Source: Caldivirga sp.
GTDB taxonomy: Archaea; Thermoproteota; Thermoprotei; Thermoproteales; Thermocladiaceae
Length of the DNA: 55,990 nucleotides
Reading direction: 5' to 3'
Assembly (NCBI RefSeq): GCF_023256255.1
Contig: NZ_JAGDXD010000015.1
Coordinates: 1 to 55,990 of the forward strand
The position numbers and the translations under genes are program-made. This document shows, piece by piece, positions 21,204-25,290 of this stretch. Position 1 is the stretch's first letter; the number at the start of each line of letters is the position of its first letter. The notes under the pieces were generated by a model. The model saw nothing but the letters and a program-made list of their open reading frames with translations, was not told the DNA's origin and ran no database searches.

Positions 21204-21923
21204 TTAGCGCGTAATTGTCCTTGCAAGTGATGTTAAACCTACTAGGAGCATTATAATGCCTATAAATACTATTAAACCCCCTATAACAAGGAACATAAAT
21301 AATAGTAGTATGAAGGTAGTATTAATTGCATTGTAGGAACTGTAAATCATGGGTACATATGAAACTACACTAATTGCTAATATTAATCCAATTATGGTTG
21401 CTAATGAGCCAGTCTTTACAATACTATTTCCATTATCAGAACCTAACTTATAGAGCACCACGAACACTAATAGCCAACCAACCAGGTTAATTAATGAACC
21501 AGCAGCGCCTAGGTATGTTAGTGAATTAACCTTAACAGGTAATGCCTGCATCATGAATCCTGGGATGTTACTTACTTTATATGAGTTCTCTAAAGTTTGA
21601 ATGTAGTACACAGCTCCAACTATTGAGAAAGGCAGTGAGACTAACTGAAGCACTGCACCGTAAACTCCAAACCTATAGACGCTCCCCAAGTTAGATAATT
21701 GCCTGAATCCAATATACTCCAGTATGGATACTATTACTACTAGTAGTGAATTGACGGCTAATGCAACGTAAAGTGGCCCCTCTATGTTAATGTAATATTG
21801 AGGTTTATTGACTATGGAGCTAGCAATATATCCTACAAGTACGATTACTAATAATATTGTGCCAAGTAGGTAAATTAATATGGCATTCCTAACCATGATT
21901 ACGCCATTTCCTACCATTTCCAT
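21204..21923 (-). CDS. Six-TM membrane protein of unknown function
   Basis: 239 residues with about six hydrophobic helices (roughly 12-32, 46-66, 84-108, 135-155, 170-192, 205-232). It has no charged motif that suggests transport chemistry and no cysteines. Similar small polytopic proteins are common in Thermoproteales and are often listed as DUF973-like; the resemblance is only general. The start at 21923 fits an A/T box TTATAAATT near 21940-21948. It stands alone beside a 445-base gene-free region. Confidence 0.6.
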   Translation of the reverse strand: MEMVGNGVIMVRNAILIYLLGTILLVIVLVGYIASSIVNKPQYYINIEGPLYVALAVNSLLVVIVSILEYIGFRQLSNLGSVYRFGVYGAVLQLVSLPFSIVGAVYYIQTLENSYKVSNIPGFMMQALPVKVNSLTYLGAAGSLINLVGWLLVFVVLYKLGSDNGNSIVKTGSLATIIGLILAISVVSYVPMIYSSYNAINTTFILLLFMFLVIGGLIVFIGIIMLLVGLTSLARTITR

Positions 21924-22368: not shown

Positions 22369-22995
22369 ATGAATGTGGGCATATTTCTGGCGGCACTAGG
22401 AATAAGTATGCTTGAGCTTTCTGAGGCTGGTGCTGTAACTGCTGTTTATCAAGGTATATATAAGGGTATTAAACCTACACTTTACGCAGTAGCTGGTGCA
22501 TTACTGGTTCTTGTACCTACTTTTACGGTAGGAAGATACATAGTGTACTTACCACTTGACTATGTCCTAGCAGTTTCAGCAGTAATACTATTTTACTTTG
22601 GCTATAGGCTACTTAGGAGCGCTAGAAGGTACTTTAAGGGAATTAGGAGGGGTAGTACTGAGGAGGAGAAGGGGGATTTGGTCGTTGTTTTCACTGTTTC
22701 TGCTGTTGAGGCCTTTGAGGCTGCATTAGTATTGATAGCATTGATACCTAAGGGTTACCTATCAGCATTAACTGGAACGCTCATTGCAGCTATAGCCGTT
22801 GTAGCCTTAACCGTGGCGCTTAAGGACCAGATATCTAGGATAAGGCTACCACACCTTAAGTACGTGTTATCAGCATTACTGTTTAGCCTTGGGACACTCT
22901 GGGCAGTGGAAATATTCATGCCGATAAGTGATTTATTCCTCCTAGCATTCTTCTTCATTTATCTAACCGTTAATTATGGATTATTAAAAATCTAA
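22369..22995 (+). CDS. Multi-TM protein resembling COG4280/iron-permease-like family
   Basis: 208 residues, six to seven hydrophobic helices. Each half has an acidic motif in a membrane helix: SMLELSEAGAVTAVYQGIYKG near residue 14 and VSAVEAFEAALVLIALIPKG near 110. This internal duplication with Glu-rich helices is reminiscent of Ftr1-type iron permeases (which have REGLE) and of COG4280 predicted transporters. A cation transport role is therefore possible but unproven. Promoter TTTAAATT near 22338-22345 fits a leaderless start. Ends 25 bases before the tRNA-half promoter. Confidence 0.65.
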   Translation: MNVGIFLAALGISMLELSEAGAVTAVYQGIYKGIKPTLYAVAGALLVLVPTFTVGRYIVYLPLDYVLAVSAVILFYFGYRLLRSARRYFKGIRRGSTEEEKGDLVVVFTVSAVEAFEAALVLIALIPKGYLSALTGTLIAAIAVVALTVALKDQISRIRLPHLKYVLSALLFSLGTLWAVEIFMPISDLFLLAFFFIYLTVNYGLLKI

Positions 22996-23020
22996 ATCCA
23001 AGCTTAAGTGTAGGGGAAAG

Positions 23021-23028
23021 TTTAAAAA
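23021..23028 (+). promoter_or_regulatory. TATA-like box of the tRNA-Ala 3' half
   Basis: TTTAAAAA lies about 50 bases before the first mature tRNA base (23076). Transcription would start near 23047-23051 and produce a GC-rich leader of roughly 25-29 bases before the tRNA part. Its own promoter separates this half gene from the upstream membrane-protein gene. Confidence 0.6.
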
Positions 23029-23046
23029 TCGTGAAGAATCAAGAAG

Positions 23047-23075
23047 CCGAGACCTGAGGACTAGGCTCCGCATAA
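23047..23075 (+). ncRNA. Leader of the split tRNA, presumed pairing arm
   Basis: GC-rich stretch containing CTGAGGACTAGGCTCCGC between the presumed transcription start and the tRNA half. In known split tRNAs, such a leader pairs with a complementary trailer on the separately transcribed 5' half and forms a bulge-helix-bulge site cut by splicing endonuclease. The partner should end with sequence complementary to this leader; none was found in the window. Confidence 0.6.
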
Positions 23076-23122
23076 GCCTCGCACGCGGGAGATCCCGGGT
23101 TCAAATCCCGGCCGGTCCACCA
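23076..23122 (+). tRNA. 3' half of a split tRNA-Ala(CGC)
   Basis: Only the 3' part of a tRNA is encoded. Present: anticodon loop CTCGCAC (23078-23084) with T33 and anticodon CGC, the 3' anticodon strand GCGGG (23085-23089), T-arm CCGGG-TTCAAAT-CCCGG (23095-23111), acceptor strand CCGGTCC (23112-23118), discriminator A and encoded CCA. The U at position 70 allows the G3:U70 pair that identifies alanine tRNA. G30 and C31 (23076-23077) pair with C40 and G39, but the bases before them (CATAA) cannot pair with GGG at 41-43. The tRNA therefore breaks after position 29. No D-arm or 5' acceptor strand exists on either side. A GC-rich leader replaces them, as in trans-spliced split tRNAs. Confidence 0.88.
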
Positions 23123-23145: not shown

Positions 23146-25290
23146 TTATCTTACCAAGCCTACTACAACTTGTCTACCCTTCAGGGTTAATTGAACTTCA
23201 TTATTAATGATGTTTATTGATGCTCCAGTTACAAGGTCCTTAATTAATGCGTTACCTACGTTAAGTACGTTTTCATTGATTCTCACCTTAACTAGTTGAT
23301 CATTATAGGAATGATTAATTATAAAGAGTAGGTGATCAATCCCGCTCTTCAATACTCTTACCTCAACGTAACCCTGTTTAGTTGACTTAACATCAACAGG
23401 TGGTTGAGCCATGGCCATCCCTATAATTCCATTCACTAGCTTTCCAACTCCACTATCTGGCCCATTAACCTCATAAGATAGGCCAATACTTGTACCAACG
23501 TAAACTGCTTTCCCATTACCATAATCGTTAATCGTTATTGAAGGTTTATCTAAGTTAAGTTCACTAACCCCCACCTCATGGGCTTTTGAGTTAAGCCAAC
23601 TAACGTAATTAGAGCTAATTATCAAGTCACCCACCTTTAAACCTGGTATTAAATCGCTTGTAATCCTTAGGCTCACTTTATCAACGCTTACATAACCATC
23701 CTCGCATCCTCCAATAACTTCACTTAAGCCGTATGCTGGGGTACATGAATCAATGTAGCCATCATTCCTAATTGCGGCGAATCTTGAATCAACCAGTAGT
23801 AACCCACCATTACTTACAAAGTCCCTTAGGCTTAAGGCGGCCTTAGGAGTCATCACTAGTGATAATGGAGCCACAAGTACCTTGTACCTACTAATTAATC
23901 CATTTTCAACCTGCCTAATGGATACTAAGTCTACATTATGATTACTGTTAAAGAGAATCCTATAGACACCCAGTATTGATTTTGATAATACATCACTACT
24001 ATGCCTTTGAGCAATCCAAAGCCACTTATATGACTCAATATTATAGAGTATGGCTATACTTGAGTTAATTAACTTAGCCTTTAGGAATAGGTCACTATAT
24101 TCGTAAATCACCCTGGCTGTTTCCCCAGCTTTCCTAGCCCTATCGGTTAATGAACCATCAGGGTTAATTAACCCGTATCCACCTGACTCGAAGCCAAGCA
24201 TCATGGGGTACCAATGATATATGTTTATTGCCTTAGCTTCATGGGCGATGGCCTGCCACATCCAAAGAGCCACATCATCTGGTGTTACTGGTTCAGTAGC
24301 CTTAAAACCACCGACACCTTGACCAGCCTGAAGTTCCCCTATCCAGTAAGGCTTACCACTGGCTGATGCGGCTGACCTAGCTGCATCAAGTACTAGGGCA
24401 TCAAGGACATGGTCAGGCTTAACCCTACCAGCGTGCTTAGGGTAAAACGATGTACCCCATGCATCAACAACACTGGCCATCTCCCAGTCATCAGGTTCAC
24501 CGAAGAGTGGATTACTGAATACTGATGTACCACCGTGACTATGGCTAACTACTGGATGGCTACTATCAATGCTCCTAATTACCTTAACCCTCCACTCAAG
24601 GTCCTCCCTGAGTTTAATGATGTTGAATGTTAACCAGTCTATGTTATCCCTAGCGAAGTGAAGGGAAACGAAACGTGGTGGTTCAACATCATTAAACTCA
24701 AGGTAACTCCTATGCCAAGCCTTATTTAATTCATTAATGCTACTGTACATGGTCCTTAACCAGTCCCTGAACCTACCCTTAGAGTAATTGCAGTAGCAGA
24801 ATAGCCCACGCCAACCAGTGGGTTGGTAAATCCACTGTATAACATTAGGCTCACTCCAAAGGTCCCAAGCATAGAAGTTAGGGTACTTGACCACTACCTG
24901 GGCTAGTCTCCTCAGGAATTCCTCAGCCCTTGCTCTAACGCCAGGATTATCAAGGCATACGCCTGGACTGCCCTGAGGCATTATGGTGCTTCCTGACTCT
25001 GAGACGTACAGTGAATCAGGGTGAAGCTTAGGCAACCAATCAGGGGCGAATTCAAGGTAAACTTGAAGAATGACCTTTAAACCAATGTCCCCAGCAACCC
25101 TAAGTAGGTTCTCAACATTGTTGAAATCATACTCCCCAGGTCTCGGTTCAGTATCCCTCCAATTCACCCAGCCTCTAACGTACTTGAACCCAGCATCCTT
25201 AATGTTATTTAAATCCCTCTTAATGGTCTCCTCATTAAACGGTGGTGTAACACTACCTATGCCATACCATACAGAAACTGGGAATGACAT
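23146..25290 (-). CDS. GH42-type beta-galactosidase
   Basis: 714 residues, no signal peptide. Residues 1-370 form the catalytic TIM barrel: YVRGWVNWRDTEPRPGEYDF near 38 is typical, DLWSEPNVIQW near 143 holds the acid/base glutamate, and WIGELQAGQG near 318 the nucleophile. Middle residues (about 400-600) form the trimerisation domain (VLVAPLSLVMTPKAALSLRDF, SNGGLLLVDSRFA), and a small beta domain ends the protein. It cleaves beta-galactosides or related plant-sugar links in the cytoplasm. It is divergent from the SIS-ROK operon. A palindrome TTAATA-TG-TATTAA covers its presumed TATA box. Confidence 0.87.
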   Translation of the reverse strand: MSFPVSVWYGIGSVTPPFNEETIKRDLNNIKDAGFKYVRGWVNWRDTEPRPGEYDFNNVENLLRVAGDIGLKVILQVYLEFAPDWLPKLHPDSLYVSESGSTIMPQGSPGVCLDNPGVRARAEEFLRRLAQVVVKYPNFYAWDLWSEPNVIQWIYQPTGWRGLFCYCNYSKGRFRDWLRTMYSSINELNKAWHRSYLEFNDVEPPRFVSLHFARDNIDWLTFNIIKLREDLEWRVKVIRSIDSSHPVVSHSHGGTSVFSNPLFGEPDDWEMASVVDAWGTSFYPKHAGRVKPDHVLDALVLDAARSAASASGKPYWIGELQAGQGVGGFKATEPVTPDDVALWMWQAIAHEAKAINIYHWYPMMLGFESGGYGLINPDGSLTDRARKAGETARVIYEYSDLFLKAKLINSSIAILYNIESYKWLWIAQRHSSDVLSKSILGVYRILFNSNHNVDLVSIRQVENGLISRYKVLVAPLSLVMTPKAALSLRDFVSNGGLLLVDSRFAAIRNDGYIDSCTPAYGLSEVIGGCEDGYVSVDKVSLRITSDLIPGLKVGDLIISSNYVSWLNSKAHEVGVSELNLDKPSITINDYGNGKAVYVGTSIGLSYEVNGPDSGVGKLVNGIIGMAMAQPPVDVKSTKQGYVEVRVLKSGIDHLLFIINHSYNDQLVKVRINENVLNVGNALIKDLVTGASINIINNEVQLTLKGRQVVVGLVR

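What the first reader, a model, noticed from the sequence alone, without database searches (positions are those of the whole stretch)
23021..23122. Half a tRNA gene: 3' half of a split tRNA-Ala(CGC) with its own promoter and GC-rich leader
Seen: anticodon loop with CGC, T-arm, acceptor 3' strand, discriminator A and CCA are perfect, but the 5' acceptor, D-arm and first three bases of the anticodon stem are missing, and no 5' half lies up- or downstream. A TATA-like box and a roughly 27-base GC-rich leader replace it. Known: Caldivirga and Nanoarchaeum assemble some tRNAs from separately transcribed pieces by trans-splicing. Inference: the split is after position 29, and the leader pairs with the trailer of a distant 5' half to form a bulge-helix-bulge. 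The 5' piece may serve more than one alanine tRNA.
Basis: partly seen in the sequence, partly recalled or inferred. Interest (0 to 1): 0.9.

Follow-up and report, generated by a model that had tools for sequence, protein, structure and literature searches.

The report
Split alanine tRNA in a Caldivirga
This is the 3' half of an alanine transfer RNA whose 5' half lies elsewhere in the same archaeal genome, so the tRNA must be assembled from two separate transcripts; the arrangement is already known from the close relative Caldivirga maquilingensis, and here it recurs in a second species, with a helix change that supports the pairing.

Summary
Window 23076-23122(+) encodes tRNA-Ala(CGC) from position 30 to CCA, behind a TATA-like box and a 23-base leader (23053-23075). 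The 5' half lies on another contig (G000:C28:126946-126917, minus): an exon of positions 1-29 and a trailer that pairs perfectly over 17 bp with the leader, forming a canonical bulge-helix-bulge with splice sites CC|A and AA|G, at 29/30. The joined RNA is called tRNA-Ala(cgc). No contiguous Ala(CGC) or Ala(UGC) was found. The same 5' half fits a second 3' half, Ala(UGC), on C28. One helix pair changed from C-G to U-A in all three genes relative to two congeners. The kind is not new: reviews of Fujishima et al. 2009 state that C. maquilingensis makes tRNA-Ala(CGC) and (UGC) from one shared 5' half, ligated at 29/30. This genome is a different Caldivirga species, so this is a new orthologue. I found no report of one further point: another congener carries intact, intron-bearing Ala(CGC) and Ala(UGC) genes at the very loci where these species carry the CGC 3' half and the shared 5' half. 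That gives an intact-versus-split comparison bearing on how split tRNAs arise. Splicing itself was not tested.

The parts
23016..23031 (+). BRE/TATA-like promoter element (GAAAGTTTAAAAATCG) of the 3'-half gene
   Evidence: Sequence. The box starts about 30 nt before the leader; similar A/T boxes (AAAGCTTAAAAATA, AAAATTTAAAAATA) precede the 3' halves in G001, G003 and C28. Transcription start inferred.
23053..23069 (+). Leader pairing segment CCTGAGGACTAGGCTCC, perfectly complementary over 17 nt to the trailer of the 5' half (G000:C28 minus strand, GGAGCCTAGTCCTCAGG)
23070..23075 (+). Leader end GCAT (pairs with AUGU, positions 24-27 of the 5' half, as the 4-bp central helix) plus AA of the 3' bulge; splice site after 23075
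   Evidence: the same ending CCGCATAA is the 3' end of 29/30 introns in tRNA-Ala of Vulcanisaeta, with close variants in other genera of the order
23076..23122 (+). 3' exon of split tRNA-Ala(CGC): positions 30-73 plus encoded CCA; anticodon CGC at 23080-23082
   Evidence: joined to the C28 5' half, ARAGORN reports tRNA-Ala(cgc)
22369..22995 (+). Upstream neighbour: iron permease-like gene (OFeT_1, PF16955), present upstream of the CGC 3' half in all three split species, absent at the syntenic place in G002
23146..25290 (-). Downstream neighbour, GH42 beta-galactosidase-like; syntenic flank used to align the locus with the intact tRNA-Ala(CGC) locus of G002
21204..21923 (-). DUF973 membrane protein; other syntenic flank (G002:C79:19324-20079)

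Best explanation
23053-23122 is the 3'-half gene of a split tRNA-Ala(CGC). It is transcribed from its own promoter. Its leader anneals to the trailer of a separately transcribed 5' half (positions 1-29, on another contig), giving a 17-bp helix and a canonical bulge-helix-bulge. The tRNA splicing endonuclease cuts both bulges (CC|A and AA|G) and a ligase, presumably RtcB, joins 29 to 30. The same 5' half is used for a second 3' half that makes tRNA-Ala(UGC). Shown here: the sequences, complementarity, BHB geometry, the joined tRNA call, genes for both PF01974 endonuclease-family proteins and RtcB, conservation in three species and the compensatory change. Inferred: transcription, annealing, cleavage, ligation and charging.
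For: 5' half and trailer found in the same genome. 17 contiguous pairs, central helix AU, UA, GC, UG, bulges CC|A and AA|G, outer helix GC, GC, AU; joined RNA called tRNA-Ala(cgc). Second 3' half Ala(UGC) with the same leader core at C28:126566(+). No contiguous Ala(CGC) or Ala(UGC). The same three genes in G001 and G003; one helix pair is C-G there and U-A here, in the trailer and in both leaders. In G001, a single 2,077,567-base contig, the 5' half (392773, +) and CGC 3' half (about 95.95 kb, -) are about 297 kb apart on opposite strands, so no cis intron is possible. Two PF01974 proteins and RtcB encoded. Published for C. maquilingensis: Ala(CGC) and (UGC) share one 5' half (PMC4390854), split at 29/30 (PMC4090602).
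Against: No RNA data. The two leaders could have changed together by gene conversion, so the compensatory change may be fewer than three independent events. The genome is about 97% complete in 71 contigs, so a contiguous copy in a gap is not strictly excluded, although none was found in two other species with the same three genes.
Confidence: 0.96

Rival explanations
1. A truncated, non-functional tRNA remnant left by rearrangement or by an element integrating into a tRNA gene.
For: It lacks the 5' half, and the locus was rearranged relative to G002.
Against: Exon, leader and promoter are conserved in three species with a compensatory leader/trailer change. It is the only source of anticodon CGC for alanine found. 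The orthologous molecules are published as expressed and joined in C. maquilingensis (reviewed in PMC4390854).
Confidence: 0.02
2. An ordinary cis-spliced tRNA with a very long intron, or an assembly artefact that separated the two halves.
For: The halves lie on different contigs here.
Against: In single-contig G001 the halves are about 297 kb apart on opposite strands. The 3' half follows the same OFeT-like gene in three assemblies. One 5' half faces two 3' halves.
Confidence: 0.01
3. A permuted tRNA, with the 3' half upstream of the 5' half, processed through a circle.
For: Permuted tRNAs occur in Thermofilum (PMC3218864).
Against: No 5' half follows in the window; the only free 5' half is on another contig with its own promoter.
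Confidence: 0.01

Closest known systems
[quoted passage not shown] 2009 PNAS; reviewed in PMC4390854, PMC4033280, PMC4090602)
   Same: Same isotype and anticodons, same shared 5' half, same ligation site 29/30. If G001 is C. maquilingensis, as its single 2,077,567-base contig suggests (length recalled, name not shown), the leader and trailer are nearly identical and the loci are syntenic.
   Different: A different species (one genome per species is held; neighbouring proteins about 67-97% identical). One leader/trailer base pair is U-A instead of C-G in all three genes, and the 5' exon has U27 instead of C27.
Split tRNAs of Nanoarchaeum equitans (Randau et al. 2005)
   Same: Separately transcribed halves with complementary leader/trailer and BHB; one half shared between isoacceptors.
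   Different: Other isotypes and split positions; there a 3' half of tRNA-Glu is shared, here a 5' half.
29/30 introns of tRNA-Ala in Vulcanisaeta and other genera of the order
   Same: Same position, start (A), end (CCGCATAA or close variants) and BHB as the trailer/leader here.
   Different: The intron is in cis, within a contiguous tRNA gene.
Split tRNA-Lys(CUU) and tRNA-Asp(GUC) of Desulfurococcales (Chan et al. 2011, PMC3218864)
   Same: Trans-spliced halves, BHB, and a congener comparison with a pair-preserving change in the paired region.
   Different: Halves close together; 30/31 or 37/38; no sharing of a half.

Membership tests
Archaeal split (trans-spliced) tRNA | 5' and 3' halves encoded at separate loci, each with its own promoter | tested here: met
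   C15 3' half and C28 5' half with TATA-like boxes (promoter activity not tested); opposite strands about 297 kb apart in single-contig G001
Archaeal split (trans-spliced) tRNA | 3'-half leader and 5'-half trailer complementary | tested here: met
   17 contiguous base pairs; C-G to U-A change in all partners
Archaeal split (trans-spliced) tRNA | Bulge-helix-bulge at the junction giving an intact cloverleaf when joined | tested here: met
   4-bp central helix, 3-nt bulges CC|A and AA|G; joined sequence called tRNA-Ala(cgc) by ARAGORN
Archaeal split (trans-spliced) tRNA | No contiguous gene for the same tRNA | tested here: met
   limited by about 97% genome completeness
Archaeal split (trans-spliced) tRNA | Joined RNA present in the cell | not testable with these tools
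   No RNA data held
Caldivirga-type split tRNA-Ala (shared 5' half, 29/30) | One 5' half with two 3' halves, CGC and UGC, ligated at 29/30 | tested here: met
   (by sequence); published definition in PMC4390854 and PMC4090602
tRNA splicing machinery able to process non-canonical BHB (two-subunit crenarchaeal endonuclease, RtcB) | Two PF01974 proteins and RtcB encoded | tested here: met
   subunit assembly and activity not tested

The most novel reading that the evidence does not exclude
The Ala split arose inside the genus Caldivirga by breaking intact tRNA-Ala genes at their own loci. The Ala(UGC) gene beside the tRNA-endonuclease gene kept its promoter and 5' half, while its 3' half came to lie nearby on the other strand. 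The Ala(CGC) gene lost its 5' half, its upstream side now being an iron permease gene, and was rescued in trans because both genes carried the same 29/30 intron. Congener G002 still shows intact genes at both loci.
Probability: 0.6. Interest if true: 0.6.

Novelty: new member of a known kind. Interest (0 to 1): 0.42.

Why it matters
Split tRNAs are rare, and whether they are relics or recent breakages is debated. A second and third Caldivirga genome with the same shared-5'-half arrangement, and one helix change seen across all three genes, supports the published pairing model. The finding that a congener has intact Ala(CGC) and Ala(UGC) genes at the same chromosomal places makes the direction and mechanism of splitting directly testable. 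It also shows how a standard tRNA annotator misses an essential tRNA.

Tried and rejected
The first pattern for the 5' half (GGGCCGGT...GCNC) missed it because the exon ends GTCC; the hit at C39 is the contiguous Ala(GGC) gene and the one at C4 is not a tRNA. Rfam scans gave only weak, irrelevant matches: a tmRNA/mascRNA acceptor-T-arm likeness, and miRNA families by chance. Synteny of tRNA-Ala loci with Vulcanisaeta or other genera gave nothing useful, so polarity rests on character states, not on outgroup synteny. A leader-like 12-mer near the endonuclease gene in G002 (C81:19748-19759, minus) is the end of a reading frame and was dismissed. The original PNAS paper is not held; reviews were used.

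Full report
OBSERVATION. At 23053-23122(+) the window holds a 23-nt leader and the 3' part of a tRNA-Ala from position 30 to the encoded CCA, behind a TATA-like box at 23016-23031. No tRNA is called here by ARAGORN, and the genome-wide tRNA model gives it only 16.1 bits. U70 in the acceptor strand fits the alanine identity pair G3:U70 (established knowledge).

THE MISSING HALF. Searching the window's own genome (G000, 2.07 Mb, 71 contigs, about 97% complete) for the complement of the leader found three relevant places: the window leader, an identical leader core on contig C28 (+, about 126546), and the matching trailer on C28 (-, about 126917-126902). Reading C28 shows a free 5' half on the minus strand, GGGCCGGTAGTCTAGCCTGGAAGGATGTCC (126946-126917), followed by A-GGAGCCTAGTCCTCAGG. 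It also shows a second 3' half, GCCTTGCACGCGGGAG..., with anticodon UGC (exon from 126566, +). With up to three mismatches the 5' exon occurs only there and in the contiguous Ala(GGC) gene on C39. With up to two mismatches the CGC/UGC 3' exon occurs only at C15 and C28. The tRNA inventory contains no contiguous Ala(CGC) or Ala(UGC).

STRUCTURE. Trailer and leader form 17 contiguous pairs. Next to them come the 5' bulge CC|A, the 4-bp central helix AUGU/GCAU, the 3' bulge AA|G, and an outer helix of three pairs: a canonical hBHBh' with cuts after position 29 and before position 30. Joining gives a 77-nt RNA that ARAGORN calls tRNA-Ala(cgc); the other 3' half gives tRNA-Ala(tgc). The BHB was laid out by hand from the sequences; minimum-energy cofolding gives the long leader/trailer helix in every case but not the short BHB helices in every case. 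The genome encodes two PF01974 proteins and RtcB. Processing itself is inferred.

COMPARISON. Their helix has a C-G pair where this genome has U-A. The trailer (C to T) and both leaders (G to A) differ together, although the CGC half lies far from the other two. This is consistent with selection for pairing; gene conversion between the two leaders is possible, so I do not count three independent events. The halves are syntenic in the three species. In G001 the 5' half and the CGC 3' half are about 297 kb apart on opposite strands, which excludes a cis intron.

KNOWN OR NEW. Reviews state that C. [quoted passage not shown] 2009 (original not held; that its products were verified experimentally is from my own knowledge of its abstract). 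The window is therefore an orthologue, in another species, of a described system: a new member of a known kind. The intron-leader relationship is also published in principle (PMC4390854). Here, 29/30 introns of tRNA-Ala ending CCGCATAA are seen in Vulcanisaeta, with close variants in other genera of the order.

WHAT SEEMS NOT TO HAVE BEEN DESCRIBED (not found in the held library). In congener G002 the Ala(UGC) and Ala(CGC) genes are contiguous, with an insertion in the anticodon loop that fits a 37/38 intron and no 29/30 intron; in G004 the same holds for Ala(UGC), while its Ala(CGC) was not found in that incomplete genome. Gene order shows that G002's intact Ala(UGC), about 3.6 kb from the splicing-endonuclease gene, occupies the place of the shared 5' half in G000, G001 and G003, with the same promoter core AAAGCTTATAACCCATT. 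G002's intact Ala(CGC), between a DUF973 gene and a GH42 gene, occupies the place of the window's CGC 3' half. In the split species an OFeT iron-permease gene lies directly upstream of the half, where G002 instead has the whole tRNA followed by a decarboxylase-like gene (my reading of a 406-codon frame). The UGC 3' half lies about 0.3 kb (G000) to 1.4 kb (G001) beyond the 5' half on the opposite strand. The simplest reading is breakage within the genus of two intact genes at a shared 29/30 intron, one 5' half then serving both. Outgroup genera of the family have intact Ala genes, which favours this direction. However, the root within Caldivirga was not tested, outgroup synteny gave nothing, and a leader-like sequence upstream of G002's Ala(CGC) leaves re-fusion possible.

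VERDICT. Observation confirmed, interpretation supported, mechanism already known. Moderate interest, mainly for the intact/split locus comparison.

Noticed in passing
[quoted passage not shown] promoter core AAAGCTTATAACCCATT is shared with the 5' half.
   Followed up: partly
G002:C79:20127-20147 (L238:8128-8148): A leader-like sequence TGAGGACTAGGC-CCACGTAA lies about 60-80 nt upstream of the intact Ala(CGC) of G002 (0 of 20,000 same-strand shuffles as good, but noticed after the fact). It may be a relic of a former 3'-half leader, which would mean re-fusion, or chance.
   Followed up: partly
G000:C68:44990-45037 (L079); also G001:C1:1043471, G002:C83:79063, G003:C51:16220: A tRNA-Gly-like 3' piece with its own TATA-like box and a conserved leader GCACCGCCCGCGTGGA(A/G)CG, resembling the shared Gly 3' half of the tri-split tRNAs; it is present in G002 too, so the Gly split may be older than the Ala split.
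   Followed up: no
G000:C7:11064-11143 (L076): Likely 3' half of split tRNA-Glu(UUC): anticodon TTC and intact T-arm and acceptor 3' strand, a further insertion after the anticodon, no matching 5' acceptor.
   Followed up: no
G000:C51:13056-15767 (L228, L229): RtcB is encoded in one 958-codon open frame whose RtcB match is interrupted by about 460 residues near profile position 50, suggestive of an intein.
   Followed up: no
G000:C28:130529-130747; G001:C1:389101-389319; G003:C23:8349-8567; G002:C81:17533-17751: The splicing-endonuclease gene lies about 3.5-4 kb from the tRNA-Ala 5' half, or from intact Ala(UGC) in G002, in all four genomes.
   Followed up: partly
G002:C1:80532-80610 (L148): tRNA-Ala(GGC) with C instead of the near-universal U at position 33 (GCTCGGC; G004 has GCTTGGC); possibly an assembly error or a true oddity.
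   Followed up: no
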